NCBI GenBank assembly: GCA_020438355.1
Contig: JAGQUT010000006.1
Coordinates: 1-64,000 of the forward strand
Reading direction: 5' to 3'
Length of the DNA: 64,000 bases
Source: Solirubrobacterales bacterium
GTDB lineage: Bacteria; Actinomycetota; Thermoleophilia; Solirubrobacterales; 70-9
The first letter of the stretch is position 1, and every line of letters begins with the position of its first letter. The translations under genes and the position numbers were made by a program. The notes below the pieces were generated by a model. The model was not told the DNA's origin and made no database searches. It saw only the letters and a list, made by a program, of their open reading frames with translations. Shown piece after piece: positions 31,870 to 55,013 of the stretch.

Positions 31870-31872
31870 ACG

Positions 31873-39395: not shown

Positions 39396-39469
39396 GCGCC
39401 CGTAGCTCAGCTGGATAGAGCGTTGGTCTACGAAACCAAAGGTCACAGGTTCGAATCCTGTCGGGCGCG
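39396..39469 (+). tRNA. tRNA-Arg (ACG anticodon), island integration site
   Basis: Complete cloverleaf: acceptor GCGCCCG (39396-39402) with CGGGCGC (39462-39468), discriminator G. The anticodon arm is TTGGT-CTACGAA-ACCAA with anticodon ACG, and the T arm is ACAGG-TTCGAAT-CCTGT. CCA is not encoded. Its 3' half from the anticodon loop onwards recurs at 44634, 47937 and 54971, as expected when tyrosine recombinases integrate at a tRNA and restore it. Confidence 0.97.
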
Positions 39470-39472
39470 CTC
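39425..39472 (+). repeat. attachment-site repeat 0 (attL, inside tRNA-Arg)
   Basis: The anticodon-loop-to-3'-end part of tRNA-Arg plus three following bases. It is the reference copy of four direct repeats. Copy 3 (54971) matches it over 43 of 43 bases, copy 1 (44634) over 42 of 43, and copy 2 (47937) over 44 of 46. It marks the left boundary of the composite island. Confidence 0.88.
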
Positions 39473-39554
39473 TTTCTTGGCGGCTCATTCGGTACTAAAC
39501 CGCGAGATTCCTGACTTCGGCTGAATCCAGCGCGATTCACCGAAATTCGTACTT

Positions 39555-39593
39555 GGCTTGTTCATGCCGGGTCGGACTATTGCTCAAACAAGC
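39555..39593. repeat. left-end inverted repeat, copy A
   Basis: GGCTTGTT (39555-39562) and AACAAGC (39587-39593) form a dyad. The whole 39 bases match the element at 48065 at 33 positions, and both start 83 bases after the last base of their attachment repeat. This is the expected place for integrase arm-type or excisionase sites. The rest of the ~400-base non-coding stretch from the tRNA to 39873 shows no gene. Confidence 0.6.
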
Positions 39594-39873
39594 TCTCGCG
39601 TCGCGCAGGTCTAGGAATCCATCTGGAGAATGGATCTATCGCCAACGCGAACGCTCACTTCGAGCAATTTGAGACTCTGCGCGATCCGCTATTCCGCCCA
39701 ATAAGGCTGGTCTGTTGAGGGAAGCCGAAACGTTCTCGGGTGACAGGTCGGGGCGCTTCCTGTGAATCACTCGGTGACAGTTGTCGGCTGAAGCTCTAGA
39801 CGACTGTGGACACAGCCCTCCCTGGCGCCTATGATTTGCTCAACTGAAGGAGCAGTGGCGAAGGAGGGGAGTG

Positions 39874-41082
39874 ATGCGGTCAAAGGAAGCATTAATCAAA
39901 CCCACTGGGGCCTTCCATCGAGCAATGGCCGGGTATCGGCCCGCTGGCAGGTTGGCTACGTCCTTCGCGGTCGGGGCCGTAGCAATGCTGATCGCTTGGT
40001 CGATGATGACGGGTAGCGAGCCATTTGCCCAAGCCGCATCAGCATCCGCGTCCCTGACATGCTCGAAAGCCAAGGAGACAGTGATCAGGGCAAAGGAAAA
40101 GTTGTCTAGAACCCGCAAGAAGGTGCTCACCCTTAGGAAGGCCTCAAAGAGAGCCACCGCAAAGCGAAGGCTTGTTATCAGGAGGGCGCTTCATGACGCT
40201 AATGCAGCAAGTAGGGAAGCGAGAAAGGAACTGAATAGAGCCAAAAGGCAAGCCAACCTAGCTTGCCCGAAAGTAATCCAGGCAAGCGCTGGTGGAGTAC
40301 ACACTTGCGCGATCAAGCTTGACCGCACCATCCTTTGCTGGGGTGAGAACTACGGTCAGCTCACTGCACCGGTAGGAGAGTTTAAGAGCATCAGCGCAGG
40401 CTGGGAGCATACATGTGCCATCAGAATCGATGCTACCATCGCCTGCTGGGGAACTAACTCAGGCGGTCAAGCAGATCCTCCGACCGGGGAATTCAAGAAC
40501 ATTAGCTCGGGTGACCGTCACACTTGCGCGGTCAGACTCGATGACACCATCAACTGCTGGGGGTATAACGATTCCGGCGAGGCCTCTCCGCCAGATGGGC
40601 TTTTCCAGAGCGTCAGCAACGGCGACGGCCACTCTTGTGCGATCAAGCTTGACGACACCATTGTTTGTTGGGGGAGCAATCACTATGGCCAATCTAATCC
40701 TCCTGACGGAAGATTCACGAGCGTCGAGGCCGGAGGCATCTTCACTTGCGCAATAAGGATTGATCGCACCGTCGCATGTTGGGGCCTAGACTTTAGGAAT
40801 CAGGCTACCCCACCGGCTGGCAAGTTCGCAAGCATCAGCGCGACCTCGTATCACACTTGTGGCCTCAAGACTGATTCGACCATTGCTTGTTGGGGCGACA
40901 GCGGCGCTGCAGGCAAGACCACCCCTCCACCCGGACGATTCAAGAGCGTCAGTTCGGGGGCCGGACACAACTGCGCGATCAAGCTTGATGACACCGTTCT
41001 TTGCTGGGGCTACAAGGGCGCCGCTGGGGGTCCGGCCACCTGGTGGCTCCCGACCGCTAGCCAAGCCGGGAGTGTAAGTTGA
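39874..41082 (+). CDS. secreted RCC1-like beta-propeller protein
   Basis: About 402 residues, with ATG six bases after GGAGG; an in-frame GTG just before it is possible. A hydrophobic N-terminal helix (~30-48) is followed by a Lys/Arg-rich coiled-coil stretch (~60-130). After it come seven ~38-residue repeats with the pattern H-T-C-A-I-K-L-D-x-T-I-x-C-W-G-x-N-x-x-G-Q-x-x-P-P-x-G-x-F-x-S-I-S-A-G. These are RCC1-type blades with two Cys per blade. Export or surface attachment is likely. Ligand unknown. It is the first cargo gene of the island. Confidence 0.82.
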   Translation: MRSKEALIKPTGAFHRAMAGYRPAGRLATSFAVGAVAMLIAWSMMTGSEPFAQAASASASLTCSKAKETVIRAKEKLSRTRKKVLTLRKASKRATAKRRLVIRRALHDANAASREARKELNRAKRQANLACPKVIQASAGGVHTCAIKLDRTILCWGENYGQLTAPVGEFKSISAGWEHTCAIRIDATIACWGTNSGGQADPPTGEFKNISSGDRHTCAVRLDDTINCWGYNDSGEASPPDGLFQSVSNGDGHSCAIKLDDTIVCWGSNHYGQSNPPDGRFTSVEAGGIFTCAIRIDRTVACWGLDFRNQATPPAGKFASISATSYHTCGLKTDSTIACWGDSGAAGKTTPPPGRFKSVSSGAGHNCAIKLDDTVLCWGYKGAAGGPATWWLPTASQAGSVS

Positions 41083-41154
41083 TTAGCAGTTTGCAGCAGT
41101 TGGCTTAGCTCTTAGCTCTATTACTACCTAGGACGAGTCGCCCAGATTGGCGAA

Positions 41155-41275
41155 GCACGCCGGTGGCGATACCAAGCACAGATTCCGACCGTGAGGCGAG
41201 CCTACCCGCCGTTCGTGGCAGCAGAGGTTGAAAGGCACTGCAGGGATCTTGTCGAGCAGGCTGCCGAGACAGAGC
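41155..41275 (+). other. relic of the sequence that follows the integrase gene
   Basis: About 115 bases here align to the region directly after the integrase stop (43378-43496): both read A-A-G-C-A, then a tract encoding R-R-A-Y-P-P, G-A/V-E-R and E-Q-A-A. The copy is diverged and no integrase lies before it, so it looks like the scar of an older integrase-bearing element. In each case a small secreted-protein gene follows. The rest of 41083-41406 shows nothing else recognisable. Confidence 0.55.
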
Positions 41276-41406
41276 TCCTTCATCCTCGGTTGGTCTCAGG
41301 TGTCGTCGAAAACGGCCTGGGACCACAGAGTTTTGTTTGCGGATTTCCTGTTAGGTCGACTGGAATCTCCTACAATTCTGACGGAAGCAACAGAACTTAC
41401 GAACCG

Positions 41407-41997
41407 ATGAAGAAAGCTCTCGTCTCTATCTTGATCATTGTGGCCGCGATTGCCGGGTTGGCCCAGCCGGCCTCTGGCGCGAGGCCTGACCCGGGAGATT
41501 ACGTCGATCTAGGATCGATCCGAACGTCCATCTGCCGTCCGTATCCTGATGTGAATCGGTTCTACATTTCGATCTACTTCACAACCAAGAAGCCTATGCC
41601 GGAGATCACCGGAAAACGGCTTTTCAGGCGTGAAACCATTGACGAGACCAATCCGGTAGTGATGACAACCGTCATGACTAGCCGCCAAATGGACTACTGG
41701 CTGGCTGAACCGACTGAAGCTGAAATCGTTATCAGGTTCACGGATGCGGATATTGGCGATTGGTCATTCCTGGTTCTTCGCGCCAACTTCTTGGATACGG
41801 GTTGCGACCGTCCTAACTGGGAGTTTGACAACAAGCTGATTGACCAGAAACGAGCACAACGAAGGGCTCAAGTCAGAGAAGCACAGACTCGCTGTAACCG
41901 GCTAAAGACGAAGGCCGCCAAGAAGAAGTGTCGTATACAAATTGCCAAAGGATGGGCGCAGAATCCGATCTACAACCCCTATCCGTTCTGGGATTAG
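41407..41997 (+). CDS. small secreted protein, unknown
   Basis: A 196-residue protein with a signal peptide (M-K-K-A-L-V-S-I-L-I-I-V-A-A-I-A-G-L, cleavage near A-S-G-A). The mature part is beta-rich with two or three Cys, and the C-terminal ~50 residues are basic (Q-K-R-A-Q-R-R-A-Q-V-R, then L-K-T-K-A-A-K-K-K-C-R). I start at the ATG giving the signal peptide; the longer frame includes the integrase-tail relic. No family recognised. Confidence 0.7.
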   Translation: MKKALVSILIIVAAIAGLAQPASGARPDPGDYVDLGSIRTSICRPYPDVNRFYISIYFTTKKPMPEITGKRLFRRETIDETNPVVMTTVMTSRQMDYWLAEPTEAEIVIRFTDADIGDWSFLVLRANFLDTGCDRPNWEFDNKLIDQKRAQRRAQVREAQTRCNRLKTKAAKKKCRIQIAKGWAQNPIYNPYPFWD

Positions 41998-42167
41998 AAT
42001 CAGAGCAGGTGCCGTTAGGAATTCGCGAGGGGGTAGGCGGGAACCATTCTTGAGCCCGTATCCTTTCTGGCTCTAGCTGTCGGCCCCATCTGCTGGGTAG
42101 CTGTCGGTAGATGGAAGTACACCAATCTCGACTTGAATAGCCGCCCAGATCAAGCTAAACAAACGGG

Positions 42168-43385
42168 GTGCTAGAACCCTCAACAGACTCAGCTGCCCCG
42201 GTTTCGGATGCGAAGCGTTCGAATCTGAGGCGTACCGTGGAGACGGGTATTTATCTGCGGCATTCGTCTAGGTGTGTGGGTGGGTTTGATGGTCCTTGTT
42301 CGTGTGTGCCGAAGTATCAGGCGCAGGTTCATTCGGCTCGGGACCGGAAGCCTGTCCGTAAGACGTTCAGGACTTTGCCGGAGGCGAGGCGTTGGCGTCA
42401 CAAAGCGAAGGAGGCTTTGCGAAAAGGGGAGATGGGTGCCCCGAGTGCGGTGTTGTTGCGTGACGCCGCGAAGCAGTGGCTCTTGGATGCTGAGGCTGGG
42501 GTGGTGAGAACCCGTTCGGGTGAGCGCTATAAGCCTTCGGCGGTTCGTGGGTATGAGAACGCTCTGCGAAGGTTTGTGGTTCCGGAGCTGGGTCATCTTC
42601 GTTTGTCGGCAATCACCAGGAAACGGATTCAGGAACTCGTCGACAAGCTCGCCCGTACGGATATGGCTCCGGCAACGGTTGCGAACTCGATTGCGCCTCT
42701 CAGGGTGATTTTCAGGCAGGCGATTGACCGTGAGGTGGTTCATGTGAACCCAACTGAGAGGTTGAGATTGCCTCGGGACCGGCGTCGGCGGGAGCGGATC
42801 GCGGAGCCGCTTGAGGTTGAGGCGCTCCTGGAGTGTTTGGATGACCGGCACCGGTTGATCTGGATGTTCGCTGTGTACACGGGTCTCAGGAAGGGCGAGC
42901 TTCAGGCACTGAGGTGGGAGAACATTGACCTTGACGCAGGAATCTTGAGGGTGGAGCATTCGTTTGATCCGAAAGCAGGATTGGTTTCCCCGAAGAGCGA
43001 GTCTGGTCGCCGCAGGGTTCCGATTCCGCAGGTGCTTGTTCCAGCGGTGGCGGCCCACCAGGAAGTGGCTCAAGCCGACACCGAGTTCGTGTTGGCGAAC
43101 TCGAGAGGAAATCCGTTTTGTGGTTCGAACGTTTACCGGGTGTCGCACAGGGAGTGGGGGAAGGCTGGTCTGAAACCTCTGGGTTTTCATGAGGCCAGAC
43201 ACACCTACGCGTCCTTCATGATCGCCGCCGGTGTGAACGCGAAAGCGCTCTCCACATATATGGGGCACTCCTCCATCACCGTGACGATCGACCGGTACGG
43301 GCACCTGATGCCAGGAAACGAACAGGAAGCCGCAATGCTCCTCGACGCTTTCGTCGAGAAACACGCCAACGGGGAACAAGCATGA
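42168..43385 (+). CDS. tyrosine recombinase / phage-type integrase
   Basis: A 405-residue site-specific integrase. The N-terminal ~75 residues resemble an arm-binding domain with a Cys-containing turn (C-V-G-G-F-D-G-P-C-S-C-V). A core-binding SAM-like domain follows (~95-190), then the catalytic domain with Arg in T-G-L-R-K-G-E, H-E-A-R-H-T-Y-A-S-F, the His in M-G-H-S-S and the nucleophile Tyr in T-I-D-R-Y-G-H. All catalytic residues are present. It probably inserted the island into tRNA-Arg. Codon use (many third-position T and G) differs from the chromosome. GTG start. Confidence 0.93.
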   Translation: MLEPSTDSAAPVSDAKRSNLRRTVETGIYLRHSSRCVGGFDGPCSCVPKYQAQVHSARDRKPVRKTFRTLPEARRWRHKAKEALRKGEMGAPSAVLLRDAAKQWLLDAEAGVVRTRSGERYKPSAVRGYENALRRFVVPELGHLRLSAITRKRIQELVDKLARTDMAPATVANSIAPLRVIFRQAIDREVVHVNPTERLRLPRDRRRRERIAEPLEVEALLECLDDRHRLIWMFAVYTGLRKGELQALRWENIDLDAGILRVEHSFDPKAGLVSPKSESGRRRVPIPQVLVPAVAAHQEVAQADTEFVLANSRGNPFCGSNVYRVSHREWGKAGLKPLGFHEARHTYASFMIAAGVNAKALSTYMGHSSITVTIDRYGHLMPGNEQEAAMLLDAFVEKHANGEQA

Positions 43386-43585
43386 GGCGCTGGTGGCGAC
43401 GCCAGGAACAGATGCCGGCAACGCGGCGGGCCTATCCACCGATGGTGGGAAGCGGAGCTGAAAGGCGACGGTGGGATCTGGCGGAGCAGGCTGCCAGGGA
43501 GGTAGTCAGCCAAGTAGGTGGGGACGAGTTCACGGTGTTACTCGCGACCAGGAGTCTCTACCTGTCAGACATTCCGACTCACTGA
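43382..43585 (+). CDS. short Arg-rich ORF overlapping the integrase stop
   Basis: A 67-residue frame whose ATG overlaps the integrase TGA (ATGA). It is Arg/Trp-rich (M-R-R-W-W-R-R-Q-E-Q-M). A diverged copy of the same DNA occurs at 41155, where the frame is partly kept (R-R-A-Y-P-P). It may be a small excisionase-like or accessory protein, or only conserved non-coding sequence. I cannot decide. Confidence 0.35.
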   Translation: MRRWWRRQEQMPATRRAYPPMVGSGAERRRWDLAEQAAREVVSQVGGDEFTVLLATRSLYLSDIPTH

Positions 43586-43635
43586 TGAGGCCGTCAGGAT
43601 CCTTGTTGCGATCCTGGTAGTGGTCCCCAGACAGG

Positions 43636-44259
43636 TCACGAACCCATCTGCTTGGTTATCTTCGGGTAGATATCCAATGCCTCTTGATAGGTGTAAAAGA
43701 TCGGCCCTATCGTCCAGATCGACTCAGCAGGAACGAGTTTTCCATCAACGGTCTTCTCCAAACGGTGCCACTGAAATTGGCTTGATCCCATCGAAAATCT
43801 CGTCAGATCCTTTGGTCGCTTCCGCATCGCGTAATCGTGAAAATCCACGGTCCATCTGTATGCCCGGCCAAATGGTGTCCAGACGATCTTCCCTCGCTTG
43901 GCCGCAACCTCTTCCCAAACCACGTTGGCCAAGATCATCGCCAGCTCCGACGCGTAGCGGACCGTAAAAGCGTCGGTTCCAAGCGAGGTGTAAAGGACCC
44001 CTCGAAGATCAGCCATGAATTGTCCCTTGCGATTCTCCGGCAAGACACGTACCACTTCGACCCGGCTTAGTTTCTGAATGCCTCTTCGCTCGGTCTTCTC
44101 GAACATTCCAGGTTTCTGCATCGCCTGCCCGTAGGTGACCTCTTGGCTCACCGACTTTGGCCATTTCTTCGTCTTGTTAGCCTCGACTGGAGCAACCAGA
44201 ATTGCGGCCGAGAGCAGGCCGACTCCCAAGAAAATGGCCATCTTCCTGATCGCGTTCAC
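43636..44259 (-). CDS. secreted protein, unknown
   Basis: A 207-residue protein with a signal peptide (M-N-A-I-R-K-M-A-I-F-L-G-V-G-L-L-S-A-A, cleavage near V-E-A-N). The mature part is mixed alpha/beta with no Cys and ends in a helical segment (T-Y-Q-E-A-L-D-I-Y-P-K-I-T-K-Q). No family recognised. It is the last gene of island module 1 and convergent with the integrase. Confidence 0.65.
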   Translation of the reverse strand: MNAIRKMAIFLGVGLLSAAILVAPVEANKTKKWPKSVSQEVTYGQAMQKPGMFEKTERRGIQKLSRVEVVRVLPENRKGQFMADLRGVLYTSLGTDAFTVRYASELAMILANVVWEEVAAKRGKIVWTPFGRAYRWTVDFHDYAMRKRPKDLTRFSMGSSQFQWHRLEKTVDGKLVPAESIWTIGPIFYTYQEALDIYPKITKQMGS

Positions 44260-44939
44260 GCGGGAAGCGTTGCAGGACGTCTCCTAGATGTCAATCGCGT
44301 CTTGGCCATCTGGCACCGTCGACTATTCCAGCTGGGTTCGGATAGGCTCTCCCAGAGGTGTCTGGGGGCAGCAAGAACGTTGGCGAATGAGAACCTACCC
44401 GTTCCGGTCGACACTGGAGGAACCGTTAATGAGAAGGGCTCCCAGTTTGTCGACCACGGAAGCTCCTATCTGCGGAACTCGGCGGATTCGGTCGTAAGTT
44501 CGATAGGAAGCGTGACCGGCTATGCCCTGAAGGCATTGCGGTTTGCAAGGACCATCAAGAGCGTTGCCGACCCGTACAGCCAGTGTGCCCCATGAGGGCG
44601 ACGGCTTGGGAATCGGTCATCTGACCTGGGCCCACGAAACCAAAGGTCACAGGTTCGAATTCTGTCGGGCGCGCTCCACATCTGACTCAGCGATTGTGGT
44701 CGCGGTCGAACGGCCTGATTCGTGGGTTCAGAAAAGGGCAGTCAGACGCACAATCGTTTCGAATCCGAGGCACGAGAATGAGTTCGCAAACAGAAACGAC
44801 GAGGGAGCCTTGAAAGTAGCTTTACATCGTCACAGAGCTCAGGTGTTGTCGGAGGACTGACTAGGTCCACTCAACCGGTTCCTCGGCGTGTAGTAGCCTT
44901 CAATTGCTGCACGTGGGTGTGTCAAGAGAGGGAGACAAG
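44260..44939. other. non-coding stretch around module 1/2 boundary
   Basis: About 680 bases without a convincing gene. It contains attachment repeat 1 and, after it, no copy of the left-end dyad found behind repeats 0 and 2. Open frames here are short, discontinuous and without family features. Confidence 0.5.
44634..44676 (+). repeat. attachment-site repeat 1
   Basis: Partial tRNA-Arg 3' half plus three bases, one mismatch to the tRNA copy (T for C at 44661, which breaks a T-stem pair). It lacks the 5' half, so it is not a tRNA gene. It separates modules 1 and 2. Confidence 0.85.
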
Positions 44940-47684
44940 TTGACTGGTTGCACTGGGCGGCGAAATCAGAGAGAAGTTGCTTCCTCGAGGGTTTCCAGAT
45001 TGGTTCTGTGGACAGTTGCCCTCATGTTGCTGGGCGGAGCCACATTCGTCGCCACGCCGGGGGCAACCGCCGATGCCGGCATTTCCGGCACTGTCAGAAG
45101 TTCCAACGGCACTCCGTTGAAGGACGTCTGCGTGGGGGTCTATCAATCTCGCGTGTTTCAGGGAGAGACCAAGACCGCCTCCAATGGAACCTATTTAGTC
45201 GGTGGTCTTGGCGCTGGCGGCTACCAGCTCCGGTTCGAGGATTGCGGCGGAAACGGAGTCGAGTACGAGTTCTACGAAAACCAGCCCACTTTCGACGATG
45301 CGAATACGGTTTCCGTGACGGAAGGTCAGATTACCGCAGGAATAGATGTGGCGCTCGAACCGGAAGGACGGATTTCGGGTTTGGTAACTGATATCGAAGG
45401 TAATCCGGTCGCTGGCGTCGGCGTATACGCTTACCGGCGCTACAACTCGAGGTTCACCGTGGGCTTTACCGAAACCGAAGCGAACGGTCGTTACCTGATC
45501 GGCGGACTCCGTCAAAGTTCTGATTACGAAGTCAGATTCTACCCTGCGGATACTTTTGTAAGCCAATCCTTCGACGGCCATTCCCCCGTCAACATTTTCG
45601 GCGATTACACGCCGGTGAGCGTGATTTCGGGACAAGAGACACCGAACATCGATGCCAAGCTGGTGCTCTTGACTGCGCCCACCGGCATCGCTGGCACCAT
45701 CAGAGGATCCAACGGCACGCCGCTTCAAGATATTTGCGTCGGGGTCTATCAGAGTCGTGTGTTTCAGGGAGAAACCAAGACGGCAGTTGATGGGACCTAT
45801 TCGGTCAAGGATCTTGTCCAGGGTCCCTACCAGATGAGATTTCAGGATTGTGGCGGTAACGGCGTCGAGTACGAGTTCTATGAGAATCAGCCCACTTTCG
45901 ACGACGCGAACTCGATCGCAGTGAAAACCGGGTACATGTCAACGGTTGATGTGGTCCTTGCCCCGGCCGGCCGAATATCCGGTTTGGTGACTGACGCGAT
46001 TGGGAACCCGGTCGCTGGTGTCGGTGTGTACGCCTACCGGCGCAACAACTCGAGGTTCACCATTGGTTCTACCGAAACTGAAGCGAACGGTCGTTACCTG
46101 ATCGGCGGGCTCCGCGAAGCATCCGATTACGAGGTCAGGTTCTACCCCGCCGAGCCTTTCATAAGTCAGTCCTACGATTCCATATCACCGGTCAACATCT
46201 TTGGTCCGTACACGCAGGTGAGCGTGGTTTCCGGTCTGGAGACACCGAACATAGATGCCAGGCTTCTCCAGTACATTTCGGTGGCAGGAACCATAACGGA
46301 CAGTCGGGGGAACTCGGTCCAGGGATGCAACGTCACGGTGGGTGGAAAATCAGCGGCGACGGATTCGGCGGGCGGGTATGAGGTTACCTTTGCGGTTCCA
46401 ACGATCGAAAATGGTATCCCGGTGATCAGATACTACGCAAGCTGCCCCTATCCGACTTACCTGGAGGCGGTAAGTGGCTCTGTGCCCGTGACCAATCCAA
46501 GTTCGGCCATAGTGGACTTGGTCGTTCCACTAAAGAATTCTATCTCCGGGATTGTCACGAATTCTGACGGGGAGCCGATCTCCGGATGCAGCGTGAGCGC
46601 CACCGCACGATCCGGCGGCTTGAGTACAGGAGTGGTCACCAATTCAAGCGGAGTGTTTAGCTTCGATCCGCTCTTGAATGGCGAGTACGATGTTTGGGTT
46701 TATTGCGGAGGGGATTACGCGCCACAGTTCCACGACGGTACCGTCGACTCGGAAAAGGTGACGCCGATACTGTTGAGCGGTGGCGATGACAGGGTCATCA
46801 ACGTTCAGGTGGGTGGATTTTCGTCTATCGGCGGTAAAGTCTCGATCCTGGGGCGCAATGATTTCTCGGATATCTGCGTGGACGCTTACGGTTCGGACGG
46901 AACATGGGCTGCCGCTGGGGTCACCGATGAAATCGGCTCATACAGGCTGGACGGACTGACTCTTGGTGACTACCGGCTGCGTTTCACCGATTGCTCCTTC
47001 TTCCCCAGTGTGATCACAGAGTTCTACCGGGACGAATCGAGTCTCGAATCGGCTGACGTCGTTTCGGTTGCAAAGGATCAGGACCGCCAGGAAATCGATG
47101 CTGAACTTCGAGACATGGAGCCTCCGAATACCTACATCGAGGAGGGGCCCACAGGTAGAATCCTGACCGATGCGGCGGCTTTCTCGTTCCGGGGTAGTGC
47201 AGACGCGACAAAGATTCAGTGCCGGATCGACTCCCAGCCCTTCACTGACTGCACCTCGCCTAAGACCTTCACCGACTTGACCGACGGGCCCCACACCGCC
47301 TACTTCCGAGCCGAAGATTCCGCCGGGAACCAGGACCAGACCCCGGCCATCAGAGACTTCACAGTTGACACAATCGTCTACAAAGCCGTAATCGGCAAGG
47401 TCAACGTAAAGGGCCCGGCTAAGGTCAGGAAAGGCAGGGTCGCTGCCTACGCAGTCAACGTCACCAACGCCGGCAACGCACAGGCGACCGGAGTGAGACT
47501 GGTCGTCTCAGGCAGGGGCATCAGGCTCAACGCCCCCGTCGGCGTGATCAATGCGGGAGTGACCCGTACGGTCAACCTCAGACTTCGCCCCTCGCGGACT
47601 GGCAGGGTCACAGCGTCCTTTAAGGTGACATCCGACAACGCTGGCAGCAGGACGGTCAAGAAGACGATAGCCGTCAGGAAGTAG
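44940..47684 (+). CDS. large secreted multi-domain surface protein
   Basis: About 914 residues. Signal helix L-V-L-W-T-V-A-L-M-L-L-G-G-A-T-F-V. The body is a series of carboxypeptidase-regulatory-like beta domains (G-x-I-S-G-x-V-T-D-x-x-G-N-P-V-A-G-V). The first ~195 residues after the signal are duplicated (DNA ~45078-45660 and ~45684-46265), each copy with Y-Q-S-R-V-F-Q-G-E-T-K and Y-E-F-Y-E-N-Q-P-T-F-D-D-A-N. Then more such domains, an Ig-like module (~740-810) and a C-terminal Lys/Arg-rich beta-sandwich ending T-V-K-K-T-I-A-V-R-K. That last domain is shared with the protein ending at 51362. TTG 44940 follows GAGGGAG. Probably cell-surface adhesive or structural. Confidence 0.8.
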   Translation: MTGCTGRRNQREVASSRVSRLVLWTVALMLLGGATFVATPGATADAGISGTVRSSNGTPLKDVCVGVYQSRVFQGETKTASNGTYLVGGLGAGGYQLRFEDCGGNGVEYEFYENQPTFDDANTVSVTEGQITAGIDVALEPEGRISGLVTDIEGNPVAGVGVYAYRRYNSRFTVGFTETEANGRYLIGGLRQSSDYEVRFYPADTFVSQSFDGHSPVNIFGDYTPVSVISGQETPNIDAKLVLLTAPTGIAGTIRGSNGTPLQDICVGVYQSRVFQGETKTAVDGTYSVKDLVQGPYQMRFQDCGGNGVEYEFYENQPTFDDANSIAVKTGYMSTVDVVLAPAGRISGLVTDAIGNPVAGVGVYAYRRNNSRFTIGSTETEANGRYLIGGLREASDYEVRFYPAEPFISQSYDSISPVNIFGPYTQVSVVSGLETPNIDARLLQYISVAGTITDSRGNSVQGCNVTVGGKSAATDSAGGYEVTFAVPTIENGIPVIRYYASCPYPTYLEAVSGSVPVTNPSSAIVDLVVPLKNSISGIVTNSDGEPISGCSVSATARSGGLSTGVVTNSSGVFSFDPLLNGEYDVWVYCGGDYAPQFHDGTVDSEKVTPILLSGGDDRVINVQVGGFSSIGGKVSILGRNDFSDICVDAYGSDGTWAAAGVTDEIGSYRLDGLTLGDYRLRFTDCSFFPSVITEFYRDESSLESADVVSVAKDQDRQEIDAELRDMEPPNTYIEEGPTGRILTDAAAFSFRGSADATKIQCRIDSQPFTDCTSPKTFTDLTDGPHTAYFRAEDSAGNQDQTPAIRDFTVDTIVYKAVIGKVNVKGPAKVRKGRVAAYAVNVTNAGNAQATGVRLVVSGRGIRLNAPVGVINAGVTRTVNLRLRPSRTGRVTASFKVTSDNAGSRTVKKTIAVRK

Positions 47685-47725
47685 GCCAGTCTCATGTCCT
47701 CTTGACGGGGGCCAGAATCCCGTCA

Positions 47726-47790: not shown

Positions 47791-47936
47791 TTCGGGACGG
47801 CACTCGTGCAGGCAGCCAAATCAATCTAAACGAGCCGTAAGATTGCGACTCGACGAGGACAGTCAGCCGGGCAGTCAGAAGCGGTCTCCGGCGCTGGAAA
47901 TCGCGCTGACGCTGGGAAAGAAATAACCCAGGATCA

Positions 47937-47982
47937 TCTACGAAACCGAAGGTCACAGGTTCGAATCCTGTCGGGCGCACTC
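47937..47982 (+). repeat. attachment-site repeat 2
   Basis: tRNA-Arg 3' half from the anticodon loop, two mismatches over 46 bases. No 5' half. It separates modules 2 and 3 and is followed 83 bases later by left-end dyad copy B. Confidence 0.85.
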
Positions 47983-48064: not shown

Positions 48065-48104
48065 GGCTTGTTCAAGCCGAATAGGACTACCGCTCAAACA
48101 AGCC
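48065..48104. repeat. left-end inverted repeat, copy B
   Basis: GGCTTGTT (48065-48072) with AACAAGCC (48097-48104), a perfect eight-base dyad. It matches copy A at 33 of 39 positions and has the same offset from its attachment repeat. Apart from it, 47983-48320 shows no gene. Confidence 0.6.
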
Positions 48105-48320
48105 CACGGGTTCCACCGAGACACGAAGTACCCGACAGATCGGCACGAAGCGTTTCCGTATCCGAAACGTCGCAGGCCCGAATCGGGCCCCCGCTATGTC
48201 CGTCAGGGGGACCCGCCGGTAGCGCGAACTCCTCAAGCCGTCGTCCCTATCCGTCCCGTCGTCCCCGGGACGGCGCGGGACGCGTCCCTGAACAGACTGT
48301 GGGGCGGTGGACGGAATGGG

Positions 48321-48950
48321 CTATTTGGCCTCGGATATCACTTGATCCCTCAGGGGCTTCAGCGTGGTCAAGGCAACCCTGGCGATTGGGCGAAGCTCGA
48401 TCGTTCCGGTGGGCATTCCACCCGGCGAGAAGCCCCTTGCCCATTCGTCTATAGACGTAGCGATCCCCGGCTTCGGCTCTGTGCTGTGTGTGCCACCAGC
48501 CACAATTGCCCCATACTTCACGACATCTCGCACAGTCGCGGTCTGAGCACCCAGGTACATGATCGGTTCCTTTATAAATTGGCCGAGGCTCAGGCTGTGC
48601 GTCGTTTGGCCCGGCATATTGGACGACGGATCGATTCCGTCGATGACGGAAAAGTAGCTCATGTTTCCGAGAGCCCTTGCCGTGCGAAGGTAGGCGTCAT
48701 TTCGGGTCACCACGAATTCCAGTTTGAGCCGCCGAGTCCGATTGACTTTGCTGACTAGACCATCAAGGAGCAGCCCTCGAAGGAGTTCTGACGACTTGAC
48801 CACGTCGTACTCATCACCGGCGATCCGCGACTCTACGTCATCCAGTGTCCTGACAAACAGTGGGTCTGGCTCCATAACGGAACAGTAGGTGACGCTGCTG
48901 ACGCCATCGACCGAGGTGTCTGGGGTTTGCACTCTGCCGATGGGCTTCAT
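48321..48950 (-). CDS. hypothetical protein
   Basis: A 209-residue protein without signal peptide or membrane helix. Charged N-terminal half (L-D-D-V-E-S-R-I-A-G-D-E-Y-D-V-V-K) followed by K-V-N-R-T-R-R-L-K-L-E-F-V-V-T-R-N-D-A-Y and a mixed alpha/beta C-terminus. I recognise no family. It is the first gene of module 3 and points towards the island left end. Confidence 0.5.
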   Translation of the reverse strand: MKPIGRVQTPDTSVDGVSSVTYCSVMEPDPLFVRTLDDVESRIAGDEYDVVKSSELLRGLLLDGLVSKVNRTRRLKLEFVVTRNDAYLRTARALGNMSYFSVIDGIDPSSNMPGQTTHSLSLGQFIKEPIMYLGAQTATVRDVVKYGAIVAGGTHSTEPKPGIATSIDEWARGFSPGGMPTGTIELRPIARVALTTLKPLRDQVISEAK

Positions 48951-49247
48951 CAGGTCGACGCGCGCCCTTCCTCGATCCGCGTGAATCGCTCCGGTACTCG
49001 AATATTCGAAGAGGCTGGAGGAGGCTCGGAGATGCCCCTAGCGTCCGTCGAGACTCGGCGAAGCCAAGACTTTGCCCGAAAGTCCGCCCAGCGGCTACAC
49101 TGAGATCGAGCTAATCGGCCGACAAAGGGGAGCAATGCGCAAGGTGTGGGTCCCACCGAACAGGAAGGGTATGCCGAGGGGAGGCTCGTTTGGCCGAATT
49201 CGCGCTTGGCGCGTTCTTGTTGCAGCCGAGGAAGGTCGAGTATCAGA

Positions 49248-51362
49248 GTGAAACTGGCAGGTCGAGGTGCGGTCGCGATGGCGGTGATTTCAGGTTGTCT
49301 ACTTCTGGCCTCATTACCGGCGGCACTTGGGTCTCCGGCAGGCAAGCCAGATCCGACCTTCGGCTACAAGCTAGATCCGATCTGGGGATTTGCCACTTTC
49401 GGGACGATCGGGATCGACTTCGGCTCCCCAGATGTCAGTGACTATGCGGGTGACGTCGCGCTGGACTCGCAGGGGCGCATTGTTGTAGCGGGGGATTTTG
49501 TCACCGCGCTCCCTAACGTTTTCGTCGCTCGATATCTCGAGGACGGTCAGCCCGACGAAAGCTTCGGCGGAGGAGACGGAATGGTGTTCGGGGAGCAAGT
49601 CCGGGCGAATATTGGCGGAGTGGGAATCGATTCGACCGGCAGGATCTTGGTCGGGGCCCGAGAGGACAGCGGCACGCTCTCAGTGTTCAGATACACGTCA
49701 GCGGGCATCCTGGATGATTCGTACGGTGACGAAGGGGTTGCTCGAGTGCATGATGTCAATTACTGCCTGACCTCAGTCGACTCCATGCACGTCTTTGCTA
49801 ATGGAGGCGTCGCCTTGGTTGGAACGCAGTCGGGTTTTGGATGCCCCTTTGACTCCGTGGTCGTAGCGCGTTTTGCTCCCGACGGTACGCCTCAGGCGGG
49901 GTTCGGAGAAGGGGGGCTGGTGAAGCTCTTCGGGGGGGAATTCGACGGCGATCACGGAGGGGACATCGCTCCTGGGCCGGCCGACACTCTGGTCGTCGGC
50001 CACTTGAAAAGCCGCGACGAGGGCCAGCCGCCAACGGATCTCGAGGTCGTGCGCTTGGCGCCTTCTGGCGCACTGGACACGAGCTTCTCTGGCGATGGCA
50101 TCGCCACACACGACCTTGGCGAAGATGAGGAAAATACAGGCCAGCTGGCCGTCGATCCCTTGGGCCGCACTCTTGTCTCGTCTTCGACTGGGAAGCTAAT
50201 CAGGCTGACGAGCAGCGGGGAGCTCGATGCGACGTTCGGCATACGGCCTGTCCCTCCAGCCGGCGACCTCGAACTCGACTCCCAGGGTCGCATTCTCCTC
50301 GCTCACAACCGCTCGGCTCAATGGGTAACCCGTCTTACGCCAACGGGTGTGCCGGATTCGTCGTTTGGTGACGCCATTGAGCCTGGAACGGCCTATGTCG
50401 GCTCCGGCGGAGGTGGCACACTTGCTATTGACGCACAGGACCGACCGGTCGTAGCGTATTACAACCTTACTCAGCTCGGTGCCGATTTGGCTAACTCGTT
50501 CGTCACTCGATTAACAGCACTGCCAGTCCCTGAGCACACCGTCACCGTGAACCTCGCCGGAGCTGGGACCGGAAACGTCGAGATACTCGGTGCGCTCAAC
50601 GGATTCAATCTATGCCCAAGCCAGTGTACGGCGCTGTTTGACGAGGGGGAAACGGCCTACTTGAATTTGACTCCGGAGGAGAACTTCGAACTCGTTTCTT
50701 GGAGCGGACCCTGCGAGGGCCAGGACGGCAACAATTGTGCCTTCGAGGTCACTTCGGACACAGAGATCACTGCGACTATCGATCGGGCCTCGGTCCCGCT
50801 GACGGTCACAAAGACCGGAGAGGGAACCGTCACCAGTTCGCCCGCAGGCATCGCCTGCGGTACTACCTGCTCCGCGAAGTTTCGTGGGGGAGTTGTAACG
50901 CTCACCGCCATACCTGAGCCAGGTTTCGAGTTCCGTGAGTGGGGGGGTCGTGCAGACTGTCTAGGAAAATTGCCTCACGCGCCCCACACTGAACCGGAAT
51001 GTAAGGTGACTATGGATTTTGGCGCGACGTCCGTGCACGCAAACTTCGTCCCCACTCGGGTAGCCAGCCTCAGCAAGGTGTGGGTTCAGGGTCCGGCCAA
51101 GGTCAAGAAGGGTAAGAAGGCCACTTACAAGGTCGCCATCTCAAATTCAGGTAATGCCAATGCCACCGCTGTGAAGCTGATAGTCAGCGGCAAGGGCCTC
51201 AAGTACGGGTCCTCGGTCGGAGTAGTCCAGAGCGATTCGACCAGAACCGTCAGGGTCAAGCTCAAACCGAAGAAGTCTGGCAAGGTCAAGGCCACATTCA
51301 GAGTGACGTCGGCCAACGCCGGCAGCAAGACCGTCAGGAAGACGATCACGGTCAGGAAGTAG
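49248..51362 (+). CDS. secreted delta-60-repeat / InlB B-like surface protein
   Basis: About 704 residues. The GTG at 49248 follows GAGGAAGG and gives a good signal peptide (K-L-A-G-R-G-A-V-A-M-A-V-I-S-G-C-L-L-L-A). Residues ~30-430 contain delta-60 propeller repeats (L-D-S-Q-G-R-I-V-V-A-G, R-Y-L-E-D-G-Q-P-D-E-S-F-G). Two InlB B-like repeats follow (~435-600, with V-T-V-N-L-A-G-A-G-T-G-N-V and V-T-K-T-G-E-G-T-V-T-S-S-P-A-G-I-x-C-G). The C-terminus is the same Lys-rich beta-sandwich as in the protein ending at 47684. Probably surface-attached by that domain. Confidence 0.82.
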   Translation: MKLAGRGAVAMAVISGCLLLASLPAALGSPAGKPDPTFGYKLDPIWGFATFGTIGIDFGSPDVSDYAGDVALDSQGRIVVAGDFVTALPNVFVARYLEDGQPDESFGGGDGMVFGEQVRANIGGVGIDSTGRILVGAREDSGTLSVFRYTSAGILDDSYGDEGVARVHDVNYCLTSVDSMHVFANGGVALVGTQSGFGCPFDSVVVARFAPDGTPQAGFGEGGLVKLFGGEFDGDHGGDIAPGPADTLVVGHLKSRDEGQPPTDLEVVRLAPSGALDTSFSGDGIATHDLGEDEENTGQLAVDPLGRTLVSSSTGKLIRLTSSGELDATFGIRPVPPAGDLELDSQGRILLAHNRSAQWVTRLTPTGVPDSSFGDAIEPGTAYVGSGGGGTLAIDAQDRPVVAYYNLTQLGADLANSFVTRLTALPVPEHTVTVNLAGAGTGNVEILGALNGFNLCPSQCTALFDEGETAYLNLTPEENFELVSWSGPCEGQDGNNCAFEVTSDTEITATIDRASVPLTVTKTGEGTVTSSPAGIACGTTCSAKFRGGVVTLTAIPEPGFEFREWGGRADCLGKLPHAPHTEPECKVTMDFGATSVHANFVPTRVASLSKVWVQGPAKVKKGKKATYKVAISNSGNANATAVKLIVSGKGLKYGSSVGVVQSDSTRTVRVKLKPKKSGKVKATFRVTSANAGSKTVRKTITVRK

Positions 51363-51369
51363 GTCGAGC

Positions 51370-51387
51370 CTCCCCCGTTTCGGGGAG
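51370..51387. terminator. hairpin between convergent genes
   Basis: CTCCCC (51370-51375) with GGGGAG (51382-51387) and loop CGTTTC; no T tract. It lies between the surface-protein stop and the end of the MBL gene. Confidence 0.35.
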
Positions 51388-51401
51388 TCGGAACCCCGGA
51401 C

Positions 51402-51956
51402 TCAGGCAGCCACCCGCTCCAGTATCCGGGCGTCCCCCTGAGAAACGAATCGGGCCGGGTAGTCGTTTCCAGGGAGACCGGCTGATAGTGCCGAATTAAA
51501 GAGGATGTCGTCCTGCTGGAAGTATTGACTTAGTTGCTTCTTCCTAAATGACCGGCTGTGGTCAACAAGGAAAGGCGTGATCGTGAATCTTCCGATTGAG
51601 ATCGGACGCTGGTCTTCCAGATGGCCGCTGAGCTCGAACCCTGGCTGTCTGCGATTGAAGAATGCTGCCTCGTCGATGATTGCCTTTGCGGCTTCGCCCA
51701 TGTAAATCGGGACTCTCGGCGAGACCAGGTCAGCGAGGCCGTAGTGGTCAGGGTGCCCATGGGTAATGACGAGCCCCTTCAGCGTTCCATCTCCGTCTGA
51801 CCATATTCCGGGCACGTCGGGTTGAAGGTCACGGTAAGCGACCTTGTCCAGTGTGAGTGGCAGGCCCGCTTCGAGAACCAGCCGGTCCCCTTCGACTTCG
51901 AGTTCAATGACTGCTCCCCCAATCTCAGCAGCCCCTCGATGAATCCTCACCCTCAA
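51402..51956 (-). CDS. truncated MBL-fold hydrolase (RNase J-like N-terminus)
   Basis: A 184-residue frame. The N-terminal ~140 residues are a good MBL domain of the RNase J/beta-CASP-like type: R-I-H-R-G-A-A-E-I-G-G, the metal motif T-H-G-H-P-D-H-Y-G and T-P-F-L-V-D-H-S. After V-D-H-S the conserved continuation (metal Asp, beta-CASP region) is replaced by an unrelated ~45-residue end. Relatives are over 400 residues long. It is probably a non-functional remnant produced by recombination or a frameshift. A 3' relic of a similar gene is at 47726. Confidence 0.65.
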   Translation of the reverse strand: MRVRIHRGAAEIGGAVIELEVEGDRLVLEAGLPLTLDKVAYRDLQPDVPGIWSDGDGTLKGLVITHGHPDHYGLADLVSPRVPIYMGEAAKAIIDEAAFFNRRQPGFELSGHLEDQRPISIGRFTITPFLVDHSRSFRKKQLSQYFQQDDILFNSALSAGLPGNDYPARFVSQGDARILERVAA

Positions 51957-52046
51957 GTCAACAACCTATCTCGCGACCGATGAGCGGGTTCTGGTCGTGG
52001 CAGTCAACCCGAGCGTCGCATCGGACCACAGCGCACACTTCGGCTC

Positions 52047-52421
52047 TCAGGACGCCTGCCGGCCTCGGTACCCGGCGGTGGCCAGAACACTCTCATTGGC
52101 CAGTTGCTCCTGAACTAAGCGGAGGGCCGCTTCTGTACCGAGCTCGTCGGCGCACAAATCGAAATACGCGGCAAAGTCCTCAACTTCCTCATTGGGTGCC
52201 AGATCAGTGCCCCAATCGGGGAATCCCTCCATGAGCCGGCCATCAGCCCAGATTCCGGCGAGGATCGCGCCCGCGGCAACCGGGCAGACTCCTCCGTTGG
52301 GTCGGCTGTCGTAGACGCCAGCTTCGATGTCGAACCATCCGCTTCGGAGGGCCCGATAGATCCAAACCTTTGGTCTCGGAGGGAGGTTGCGTGTCGCGTC
52401 GATTAGGTGAATCTCGAACAT
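52047..52421 (-). CDS. hypothetical protein
   Basis: A 124-residue soluble acidic protein with one Cys-containing stretch (G-G-V-C-P-V-A-A-G-A-I-L) and D-W-G-T-D-L-A-P-N-E-E-V-E-D-F. Predicted helical C-terminus. No family recognised. It lies about 90 bases downstream of the nuclease-like gene on the same strand and may be the third gene of that transcription unit. Confidence 0.55.
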   Translation of the reverse strand: MFEIHLIDATRNLPPRPKVWIYRALRSGWFDIEAGVYDSRPNGGVCPVAAGAILAGIWADGRLMEGFPDWGTDLAPNEEVEDFAAYFDLCADELGTEAALRLVQEQLANESVLATAGYRGRQAS

Positions 52422-52512
52422 GAACTAGTCGGAGGGTCGTGGCTCGAGCGTGGACCTGACAACCAACTCGCGGGAGGATCATCGTTGCACGGAAGAGGCC
52501 ACGGGATGAGCG

Positions 52513-53580
52513 CTAAATGTTCAGCGATCCGTTCCGACAGGCGCAGCTCATTCGGTGGAGCTGATCGATCCTTGAGAGGTGCTCGTCTAGGTCGCTACCG
52601 CCCAGTTCGTGTTTCTTGAGTTGTGTTGGGCTCACGATGAGGGGTTCTACGTTGTTTGGCCAATCGATCAGGTCACCGTGGTAGTCGAGGAAGCATTCGT
52701 CGTCGAACACGAGCATCGCTGCTTGCTTGCAGCGTCCGATCTCAACGGCGCGGCTCAGGTTTCGCAGGTCCTTGGCTATGCCACCTTTCGGGTCCGTTGC
52801 TCGTTTGAGTAGTTCACCAGTCTTGGTCCAGCGTCCGGACTTGAGCCACTTGGCTTCGATGAAAAGGCTGTGCTGCCAGGTGCGAAACGCTGCTTGTGTT
52901 TCTGTGCTCTCTTCGAGTCCGTTCAGATCCGAGACGACCAGGTCGATTGCCTGTCTGGAGTCGCTGTCTGGTGAGTAGTCGGCACGCATCGCCCTGTTGA
53001 TCTTGAACTCGGTGTGCACTGAGTTGGGGAATTCTTTTTCCAGTTCGATGGCAAGCCGAAGCACACAGTCTTGTTCGGACCAGATCATTGGTCCGTAGAA
53101 GTTCCTTGGGTCCTTCTGGTTCGTCCACCCGTAGTACCGGAAGCCACCCCAAACGGCGTAACCCTCCAGAACGCGAAGATACGCCGACCGCAAGCCACCG
53201 GAAACGTCGTCCCCGGGGCTCGGAGGATCTGATTTCGGCATGTACCCGCCAGCGCTGACAGCATGCTGGGATGCCTGCTGCGCTATTGCGAACCTGTGAG
53301 CCGCGTCGATCAGATCACGGACCGGGGACGGAAGCTCGTTATCCGGCAGCTGTTCAAGCAGTCTGATCTTTGCGGCTTCGTCGATATCGGGGTTGTTGAG
53401 GATCTGGCCAGCCGGGCCTAGTGCGGCTTCCTGGCTGCGCGCCCATATCTCGACTGCCTGTCTCGCCTCGATCAGCGCGTTTCGGCCTTCAAGTAGATCT
53501 AGCGCGAACTGCGGGAGATCGAAATCTGGATCGGGATGGACAACTCCTTTGGCGATCTCAAACCCGGGCTCTTCGTTCAC
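52513..53580 (-). CDS. PD-(D/E)XK nuclease-like protein
   Basis: A 355-residue protein. The N-terminal ~170 residues are helical, with no known domain. The middle holds a plausible restriction-endonuclease-like core: S-E-Q-D-C-V-L-R-L-A-I-E-L-E-K-E, H-T-E-F-K-I (Glu191), A-I-D-L-V-V (Asp213) and F-I-E-A-K-W (Glu242, Lys244), i.e. E...D...ExK in correct order and strand context. I start at GTG 53580, whose first base is the last base of the upstream TAG; an ATG at 53616 overlaps that gene by 37 bases. Coupling to a winged-helix gene suggests a regulated nuclease or defence gene. Family unknown. Confidence 0.65.
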   Translation of the reverse strand: MNEEPGFEIAKGVVHPDPDFDLPQFALDLLEGRNALIEARQAVEIWARSQEAALGPAGQILNNPDIDEAAKIRLLEQLPDNELPSPVRDLIDAAHRFAIAQQASQHAVSAGGYMPKSDPPSPGDDVSGGLRSAYLRVLEGYAVWGGFRYYGWTNQKDPRNFYGPMIWSEQDCVLRLAIELEKEFPNSVHTEFKINRAMRADYSPDSDSRQAIDLVVSDLNGLEESTETQAAFRTWQHSLFIEAKWLKSGRWTKTGELLKRATDPKGGIAKDLRNLSRAVEIGRCKQAAMLVFDDECFLDYHGDLIDWPNNVEPLIVSPTQLKKHELGGSDLDEHLSRIDQLHRMSCACRNGSLNI

Positions 53581-54023
53581 TATGACCCCACTTTCGCTGA
53601 TGCCTCTTTCACCCATTCAGCAACTTCTGGGGTCATTCGGTGCTCGACCTGGCTGCCGTCCGCAATATCTCTGGACTCCCACGGCTTCACGCCCCCGTAG
53701 CGATTGGTGGCCCGCCGGCTGAATGTGCTCAGGTATGCCCCGACAGTGCCGCGCTTTTCGCCGAGTGCCTTGGCGATCTCTCTTGTGGTCTGCCATTCCC
53801 CGGCGTGATCTGCCAGGTACAGCATCAATTGCTCGTGTGACTCCTTGCTTTCGCGGTACATGCGAGCCACGAGCTCTTTCGTCAACGCGGGGGCAGGCGG
53901 TGCGTTTTCCGCGTCTGAAATCTCTGCGTCCTCGCGTTCCAGGCGCGAGATCAGTTCATAGACCCGGGTGACATAGCGGGCGGGAACCTGTACTGCGATG
54001 AAGTCCGTTGAAGCGTCTGACAT
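53580..54023 (-). CDS. winged-helix DNA-binding protein, partner of the nuclease-like gene
   Basis: A 147-residue protein. A coiled-coil-like charged segment (~20-70) precedes a winged helix (~75-110) with W-Q-T-T-R-E-I-A-K-A-L-G-E-K-R-G-T-V-G-A-Y-L as the helix-turn-helix. The C-terminus contains Y-G-G-V-K-P-W. The stop overlaps the start of the nuclease-like gene by one base, so the two are one unit. Upstream (54024-54259) is an AT-rich divergent promoter region shared with the HTH gene on the other strand. It could target the nuclease to DNA or repress the unit. Confidence 0.65.
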   Translation of the reverse strand: MSDASTDFIAVQVPARYVTRVYELISRLEREDAEISDAENAPPAPALTKELVARMYRESKESHEQLMLYLADHAGEWQTTREIAKALGEKRGTVGAYLSTFSRRATNRYGGVKPWESRDIADGSQVEHRMTPEVAEWVKEASAKVGS

Positions 54024-54259
54024 GAGGGTTCTCCTTGTTCTTGTTGTTTTCCAAGGGCCATATTAGCACACAAATAGAGCCACAAAAAACTTTTTAGGGT
54101 CCAAAACACCCACGGAGCTTTCGCGAGGGAGTAGGTGCGTGCACTTCGGACTCTGCGAATCCCCTTTCCATAGCCATCTCATGGGTATCGAGGGTCGTTT
54201 TCGGGTTGGACGGAAAATCCGTGCTGAGGTATGTGGAAACCCTTTCGAAGGAGATTTCC

Positions 54260-54838
54260 ATGACCAAGGCACAGCGAGTAGAGCGAGATTTCTTCATCAA
54301 GCTGATGGACATGCGTGGCGCATCACAACGGCGGATCGCCGAGACGTACGGGATCACGGACCGGCAGGTGCGTCGCATCCTGAAAAGGTGGGCCGAAAGC
54401 CCGTACAGGCGCGACACGGAGGGTGCCTACGAAGAAGTGTTGCGCGTCCTTGAGCTCGTCAAGGAAGACATGGAGGCGCTCGGGATCAAAGCTGACCAGG
54501 CCTCGCCGATGGAGAGCCTGATCATCCTTGGACGAAGGGTCGATCTGATCATCAAGAGCTTTAAGGTGCTCAACGATCTCGGCATTAACTTCGATGGGGT
54601 TCTGGACCACGTCTACGGGAGTCCAATCAAAGACCCCGATCTCATCCGTGACGTAAACGGCGCGATCCGCGAGGTCCTCACGGAGCACGGAGTTGACCGC
54701 ATCGTGATCGAAAAGGCCCTTCATGCCGGCCTGGACAAGTATGCGGACTGGGGTGTCCCGGTGCCTCGAGTCAAGGTAGATTGGACAGAAATGTCCGAGC
54801 GGCTCGCAAAAGTGGAGGCCGGACACGAATCCCAGTAA
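54260..54838 (+). CDS. helix-turn-helix protein, terminase-small-subunit or regulator type
   Basis: A 192-residue protein. ATG 54260 is six bases after CGAAGGAGA; the longer frame from 54206 is less likely. Residues ~17-42 form a homeodomain-like HTH (A-S-Q-R-R-I-A-E-T-Y-G-I-T-D-R-Q-V-R-R-I-L-K-R-W). The rest is helical and acidic (E-E-V-L-R-V-L-E-L-V-K-E-D-M-E-A-L). It is the last gene of the island and divergent from the winged-helix/nuclease pair. Regulator of that pair, or a phage-derived small terminase-like protein, are both possible. Confidence 0.65.
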   Translation: MTKAQRVERDFFIKLMDMRGASQRRIAETYGITDRQVRRILKRWAESPYRRDTEGAYEEVLRVLELVKEDMEALGIKADQASPMESLIILGRRVDLIIKSFKVLNDLGINFDGVLDHVYGSPIKDPDLIRDVNGAIREVLTEHGVDRIVIEKALHAGLDKYADWGVPVPRVKVDWTEMSERLAKVEAGHESQ

Positions 54839-54840
54839 TA

Positions 54841-54895
54841 ATGTCCGCTTTTTGCCCTTTCCGCGGACATTTCTTCATCCCAATGCAGGGATGAA
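54841..54895 (+). terminator. double hairpin after the HTH gene
   Basis: ATGTCCGC (54841-54848) pairs with GCGGACAT (54863-54870) and is followed by TTCTTC. A second stem, TTCATCCC (54874-54881) with GGGATGAA (54888-54895), follows. The first starts two bases after the gene's TAA, so termination is the likely role. Confidence 0.55.
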
Positions 54896-54970
54896 TCGCT
54901 CAAAGCAGACCACCGTATGAACCCCTGAAAGAACCGCTCAACCAGGCCGACACCGCGGCCAGGGGCATCC

Positions 54971-55013
54971 TCTACGAAACCAAAGGTCACAGGTTCGAAT
55001 CCTGTCGGGCGCG
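54971..55013 (+). repeat. attachment-site repeat 3 (attR, right island boundary)
   Basis: Forty-three bases identical to the tRNA-Arg 3' half, without the 5' half. After it the sequence returns to chromosome-like composition. It is the outermost copy, so recombination with repeat 0 would excise the whole island and leave an intact tRNA. Confidence 0.87.

What the first reader, a model, noticed from the sequence alone, without database searches (positions are those of the whole stretch)
39396..55013. Four direct copies of the tRNA-Arg 3' half: serial integration array
The tRNA copy (39425) and copies at 44634, 47937 and 54971 are 95-100% identical over ~43-46 bases, always starting in the anticodon loop. 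Only one integrase is present. This is the expected footprint of repeated insertion at one attB, producing a stack of three modules, each potentially excisable alone or together.
Basis: partly seen in the sequence, partly recalled or inferred. Interest (0 to 1): 0.68.

Follow-up and report, generated by a model that had tools for sequence, protein, structure and literature searches.

The report
Stacked gene modules at a tRNA-Arg gene
A bacterium of the order Solirubrobacterales carries three mobile-DNA modules inserted one behind another at the end of one arginine tRNA gene, part of a genus-wide habit of stacking cargo there; such stacks are known from other bacteria, but here the DNA handles of the recombination enzyme can be read off at fixed positions and suggest that at least two different enzymes built the stack.

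Summary
tRNA-Arg(ACG) at 39396-39470 is followed by three displaced copies of its 3' half (44632, 47938, 54972; 41-42 of 43 bases; the next best match is background). All start at the first base of the anticodon loop and end at the tRNA end. The stack is not shared by congeners: the interval from tRNA to a conserved right-hand gene ranges from 6.5 to 29.9 kb in five species. The same 3' half recurs in other species of the genus (about 18 extra copies in one), and all six genomes with a related integrase are multi-copy genomes. New here: the copies' flanks carry direct-repeat sites at fixed distances (+65 or +109 downstream, -77/-78 upstream), as expected of integrase arm-type sites, of at least two types. 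In the window, module 3 and the whole 15.5 kb are bounded by arm sites of the resident integrase's presumed type; module 2 has arms of another type; module 1 has no matching right arm. Serial insertion is supported; "one integrase, each module excisable alone" is not. The kind is known (ICE/CIME accretion, Dehalococcoides ssrA islands, additive flexible islands). Circles and junctions could not be tested.

The parts
30475..37430 (+). left chromosomal anchor: genes that sit beside this tRNA in several species of the genus
   Evidence: tblastn synteny; gene calls
39396..39470 (+). tRNA-Arg(ACG), the regenerated target gene; its 3' half 39428-39470 is core copy 0
39579..39594 (+). type C arm-like site of module 1, +109 from core 0 (ATTGCTCAAACAAGCT)
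   Evidence: 24.1 bits
39871..41082 (+). module 1 cargo: RCC1-repeat protein, signal-like start
   Evidence: Pfam RCC1_2 3.8e-47
41386..41997 (+). module 1: protein of unknown function (203 aa)
   Evidence: no family
42168..43385 (+). tyrosine integrase, 405 aa, with R241, K276, H341, R344, H367 and Y377 invariant in seven relatives
   Evidence: Pfam PF00589 1.1e-25; alignment; PDB relatives
43636..44259 (-). module 1: protein of unknown function (207 aa)
   Evidence: no family
44632..44674 (+). core copy 1 (41/43 to tRNA 3' half)
44675..44781 (+). type A left arm of module 2, related over about 104 bp to the 171-bp arm-only units of G002; degenerate CAGTCA site at +65 (from 44739)
   Evidence: nhmmer 5.7e-16; alignment
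44904..47684 (+). module 2 cargo: CarboxypepD_reg repeat protein with CARDB-like C terminus (926 aa)
   Evidence: C-terminal match
47860..47877 (+). type a right arm site of module 2, CAGTCAGCCGGGCAGTCA, -78 from core 2
47938..47980 (+). core copy 2 (41/43; carries stem allele ACCGA, the tRNA has ACCAA)
48089..48104 (+). type C left arm site of module 3, +109 (ACCGCTCAAACAAGCC)
   Evidence: 25.2 bits
48321..48950 (-). module 3: protein of unknown function (209 aa)
49146..51362 (+). module 3 cargo: DUF5122/InlB-repeat/CARDB protein (738 aa)
51402..51956 (-). module 3: metallo-beta-lactamase-fold protein (184 aa)
52047..54023 (-). module 3: three genes (124, 367 and 147 aa), the last with a weak HTH match
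   Evidence: the 124-aa protein has a 73% relative in a G003 module
54206..54838 (+). HTH_23 protein beside the right arm; relative lies between integrase and right arm in G015
54895..54910 (+). type b right arm site of module 3, -77 (ATCGCTCAAAGCAGAC); weaker second site 54933-54948
   Evidence: 16.4 and 11.5 bits, matrix trained on left arms only
54972..55014 (+). core copy 3 (42/43), distal end of the array
   Evidence: no further copy to 64000
62177..63451 (-). conserved right-hand anchor gene (424 aa)

Best explanation
A tRNA-anchored accretion array. Tyrosine integrases of one subfamily recombine the 7-bp anticodon loop of the chromosomal tRNA-Arg(ACG) with the same sequence in a circular element whose attachment site is the tRNA 3' half with arm sites on both sides. 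Each insertion regenerates the tRNA with the incoming 3' half and pushes the old 3' half to the far end of the new element; three insertions gave modules 1 (39471-44631), 2 (44675-47937) and 3 (47981-54971). Shown: repeated cores with exact boundaries, arm-like repeats at fixed distances, more than one arm type, an intact integrase frame with all catalytic residues, variability of the locus between conserved anchors. Inferred: that these repeats bind the integrase's arm-binding domain; that type C/b belongs to the resident integrase and the CAGTCA type to an integrase clade not found in this genome; that the resident enzyme can still excise module 3 and the whole 15.5 kb but not module 1 or 2 alone. 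No transfer or virion genes were recognised in the modules, so movement between cells would need another vehicle.
For: Copies with exact boundaries and different flanks. tRNA-to-anchor interval 6.5, 11.3, 12.1, 22.7 and 29.9 kb in G008, G010, G009, the window and G001, left flank syntenic. Same block repeated in eight genomes of the genus, the six with a related integrase all among them (p 0.0015). CAG[TG]CA-N6-CAG[TG]CA: 18 of 19 occurrences in 588 kb lie beside a core in the same orientation at fixed offsets. Matrix trained on left type C sites finds right sites at -77/-78 in the window, G002 and G015. Single elements of related integrases at other tRNAs have tandem arm-like sites at similar offsets. 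Inverted core half-site GTGACCT at exactly -12 in 18 of 48 copies. GC dip.
Against: No circle, junction read or empty site of the same species was available. The motifs were recognised after inspection of the flanks. The link between arm type and integrase clade rests on four integrases, and in G015 the tRNA and the integrase are on different contigs. GC and gene content are also unusual between 55 and 58 kb, outside the repeats.
Confidence: 0.85

Rival explanations
1. One original element bounded by the tRNA and the copy at 54972, carrying integrase and HTH gene at its two ends, into which other elements inserted at internal cores; that is, nesting instead of repeated insertion at the tRNA.
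For: The whole 15.5 kb has matching type C left and type b right sites. In G015 the integrase, the HTH relative and the type b arm are neighbours, whereas in the window integrase and HTH gene lie in modules 1 and 3.
Against: Module 3 has its own type C left site at 48089, so it is a complete bounded unit by itself; the integrase-bearing module is also next to the tRNA in G001.
Confidence: 0.1
2. The resident integrase recognises all arm types loosely and serves all three modules.
For: All cores are nearly identical and all integrases found here are of one subfamily.
Against: Arm sites of modules 2 and 3 differ in sequence and left spacing (+65 against +109), and module 1 has no recognisable right site.
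Confidence: 0.15
3. Assembly error or chance similarity to a tRNA.
For: The genome is a draft of 133 contigs.
Against: All four copies lie on one contig with different flanks; independent assemblies of sister species show the same block with the same arm families at the same offsets; next best match in the window 26/46.
Confidence: 0.02

Closest known systems
Dehalococcoides ssrA-specific genomic islands (PMC3146451)
   Same: Many islands in tandem behind one RNA gene, separated by repeats of its 3' end, about half without integration genes, a conserved motif beside the repeats.
   Different: There a serine recombinase, tmRNA gene and 20-bp repeat; here a tyrosine integrase, tRNA-Arg, 43-bp repeat from the anticodon loop, arm-like sites of several types.
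Additive flexible genomic islands, e.g. tRNA-Lys island of Ca. Methylopumilus (PMC10872708); also Ca. Actinomarinales (PMC7771536), Alteromonas (PMC4119200)
   Same: Variable number of repeats of a tRNA 3' end, gene cassettes added at a tRNA, islands from 330 bp to 42 kb.
   Different: Those passages describe no arm sites or integrase specificities; repeat 20 bp in Methylopumilus.
ICE/CIME tandem accretion (ICESt1-related; cited in PMC3146451)
   Same: Elements without integrase keep attL/attR and can move with a neighbour.
   Different: No conjugation genes recognised here; modules carry one to several cargo genes.
Integrons
   Same: An integrase plus a row of cassettes separated by att sites.
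   Different: Sites are tRNA 3' halves with arms; the integrase lies inside a module and is closest to phage/ICE-type Int structures, not tested against IntI criteria.

Membership tests
tRNA-targeted tyrosine-integrase island in tandem accretion | tRNA regenerated at one end, displaced 3' fragment at the other end of each module | tested here: met
tRNA-targeted tyrosine-integrase island in tandem accretion | tyrosine integrase with catalytic residues within the array | tested here: met
   42168-43385; R241, K276, H341, R344, H367, Y377 invariant
tRNA-targeted tyrosine-integrase island in tandem accretion | absence or variation of the insert in relatives between conserved flanks | tested here: met
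   (species level)
tRNA-targeted tyrosine-integrase island in tandem accretion | excision as circles and empty site | not testable with these tools
   no reads
ICE or IME | conjugation or relaxase genes | tested here: not met
   no such Pfam family in the module proteins
Prophage or phage satellite | virion or packaging genes | tested here: not met
   PHROGs finds integrase and weak regulator matches only; eight proteins scanned
Integron | IntI-type integrase with attC hairpin sites | tested here: inconclusive
   separating sites are tRNA 3' halves; IntI-specific motif not checked
Tycheposon | tycheposon-type recombinase | not tested
   no reference set used

The most novel reading that the evidence does not exclude
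A genus-wide, integron-like cassette system built on a tRNA: cargo-only modules keep complete integrase handles (core plus arm sites at fixed offsets), are served in trans by several integrases of differing arm specificity, accumulate to some 18 copies in a genome, and shrink to about 171-bp arm-only units (left arm, one shared CAGTCA site, right arm, core), comparable to solo LTRs, that recur at several places and in several species.
Probability: 0.3. Interest if true: 0.65.

Novelty: new member of a known kind. Interest (0 to 1): 0.45.

Why it matters
It suggests that cargo without an integrase can be assigned to one from sequence alone, by the position and type of its arm sites, and so predicts which modules of a stack can move and with which partner. 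It extends tRNA accretion arrays to a little-studied actinobacterial order.

Tried and rejected
Chance and artefact (rejected). A phage source: the exact core with its allowed alleles is absent from IMG/VR, and only remote integrase relatives (46% identity or less) occur there. A further copy beyond 55 kb: none. Defence role of the modules: no convincing PADLOC match. A clean empty site: in G010 the tRNA is followed within 30 bp by a 106-aa gene that in G008 follows a core copy on another contig, but this may be a shared module end, so it is not used. My first flank-similarity null was spoiled by overlapping draws and was redone. Shared 11-mers between left and right arms alone are not significant (25% of random pairs); fixed position carries the argument. 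A literature search found no report on such arrays in Solirubrobacterales.

Full report
What is there. The window comes from a 2.62-Mb, 133-contig genome. The tRNA-Arg(ACG) at 39396-39470 is intact. Its 3' half, exactly from the first base of the anticodon loop to the gene end (43 bases), recurs at 44632, 47938 and 54972 with 41, 41 and 42 identities; the next best place in the window over 46 bases has 26 matches. No copy lies beyond 55 kb.

The locus in relatives. The genes at 30.5-37.4 kb sit beside this tRNA in several species, while the following 15.5 kb are not shared as a block. A gene at 62177-63451 is a right-hand anchor in G001, G008, G009 and G010; the distance from tRNA to anchor is 6.5 (G008), 11.3 (G010), 12.1 (G009), 22.7 (window) and 29.9 kb (G001). 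In G017 the anchor gene lies on the other side of the tRNA, so the locus is rearranged there. GC falls from about 0.65 to 0.54-0.61 in the array and up to about 58 kb.

A genus-wide array. The same 3' half is repeated in other species: about 18 copies beyond the tRNA on 12 contigs in G002, eight in all in G003 (one degenerate), six in G017, three in G001, and one or two beyond the tRNA in G008, G015 and G016; G004, G006, G007, G009, G010, G011 and G012 show only the tRNA copy. For G012 and G017 the tRNA is itself followed by a module arm, so absence of further copies can reflect broken contigs. Relatives of the window integrase (E up to 1e-40) occur in six g1 genomes, all among the eight with extra copies (p = 0.0015). 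Distances between neighbouring copies run from 171 bp to 12.7 kb. G002 is fragmented; one pair of its contigs overlaps and orders four copies, the rest are unplaced, and binning errors cannot be excluded.

Arm sites. Outside the tRNA sequence, the flanks of the cores fall into families shared between species (alignments). One family carries the tandem motif CAG[TG]CA-N6-CAG[TG]CA: 19 occurrences in 588 kb, 18 of them beside a core in the same orientation, at +63 to +65 downstream or -64, -75 or -78 upstream. A second family carries ATCGCTCAAACAAGCC at +107 to +109 downstream; a weight matrix trained only on those left sites finds sites at -77/-78 upstream in the window (54895), G002 and G015. 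Single elements at other tRNAs with related integrases have tandem 11-12-bp sites at about +106 to +122 and -71 to -84 (L091, L101, L109, L133). The upstream half-site GTGACCT sits exactly at -12 in 18 of 48 copies (at least 5 of 7 bases) and is the inverted partner of AGGTCAC inside the tRNA, leaving a 7-bp centre equal to the anticodon loop. Together this looks like a lambda-type attP: inverted core sites round a 7-bp overlap and direct-repeat arm sites on either side. That the sites bind the integrase is inference. The motifs were chosen after seeing the flanks; the matrix test and the elements at other tRNAs are the more independent evidence.

What it says about the window. Module 1 (39471-44631; RCC1 protein, integrase, two unknown genes) starts with a type C site and has no recognisable right site. 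Module 2 (44675-47937; one large repeat protein) has CAGTCA-type sites on both sides, the left one degenerate. Module 3 (47981-54971; DUF5122/CARDB protein, unknown genes, an HTH_23 protein) has a type C left and a type b right site. The 81%-identical integrase of G015 has a type b right end, and the G015 tRNA, on another contig, a type C left end; the 47-49%-identical integrases of G003 and G001 sit in modules with CAGTCA- or CAGGCA-type sites. So the resident integrase plausibly serves type C/b. It could then excise module 3 or the whole 15.5 kb, while modules 1 and 2 alone are not predicted substrates. Core copy 2 carries a stem allele (ACCGA) seen in other species' tRNAs and not in the present one (ACCAA), as expected if module DNA came from outside.

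Small units. In G002 several units of 171-182 bp consist of a left arm, one CAGTCA site and a right arm between two cores. Their length is that of two arms sharing one site, as if cargo had been lost by recombination between arm sites, like a solo LTR; that origin is inference. Related or decayed units occur in G012, G015, G017 and at 44675-44781 of the window.

Cargo. Each window module carries one large protein with a signal-like start (by eye) and repeat domains. The last 95 residues of the module 2 and module 3 proteins are 56% identical and recur in or near modules in G002, G009 and G017. Other species' modules carry a subtilase, a multicopper oxidase, ABC transporter parts, a beta-lactamase-family protein and a Phd/YefM-type antitoxin. 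No transfer or virion genes were recognised in the window modules.

Comparison. Tandem islands with repeated 3' ends of an RNA gene, many without integrase, are known: Dehalococcoides ssrA islands (PMC3146451), the additive island of Ca. Methylopumilus at tRNA-Lys (PMC10872708), Ca. Actinomarinales (PMC7771536), Alteromonas (PMC4119200). The array is therefore a new member of a known kind; the readable arm sites, the mixed specificities and the arm-only units are what sets it apart.

Noticed in passing
L243 (G013:C79), reverse-complement positions 3728, 5417 and tRNA 9012-9086: Mirror image of the array: 32-35-bp copies of the 5' half of tRNA-Arg(TCT) lie upstream of the intact tRNA, with an integrase-like frame between (about 6576-7622). 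An element that swaps the 5' half of a tRNA is unusual.
   Followed up: partly
44904-47684 and 49146-51362: The large proteins of modules 2 and 3 share a CARDB-like last 95 residues (56% identical), also found in proteins in or near modules of G002, G009 and G017.
   Followed up: partly
L045 (G002:C178) 3829-4497: A 222-aa C-terminal piece of a tyrosine integrase starts 6 bp after a core copy, with genes of ordinary chromosomal type behind it.
   Followed up: no
L057 end and L055 start (G003 C21 and C2): Both contigs seem to end inside an IS3-like transposase gene (by eye), so the two halves of the G003 array may be joined by one insertion sequence.
   Followed up: no
54206-54838 and L060 4842-5336: HTH_23 protein next to the type b right arm in the window and in G015 (42% identical); perhaps a directionality factor or regulator.
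   Followed up: no
63522-63842; L077 4795-5115; L059 2459-2779: A 106-aa gene lies about 30 bp after the tRNA in G010 and after a core copy in G008, but beyond the anchor gene in the window: old chromosomal flank or mobile module end.
   Followed up: partly
L052 (G002:C144), reverse strand near 2372-2415: A core truncated to its last part (GGTTCGAATCCTGTCGGGCGC) is still followed by a type C arm site, a likely decayed module border.
   Followed up: no
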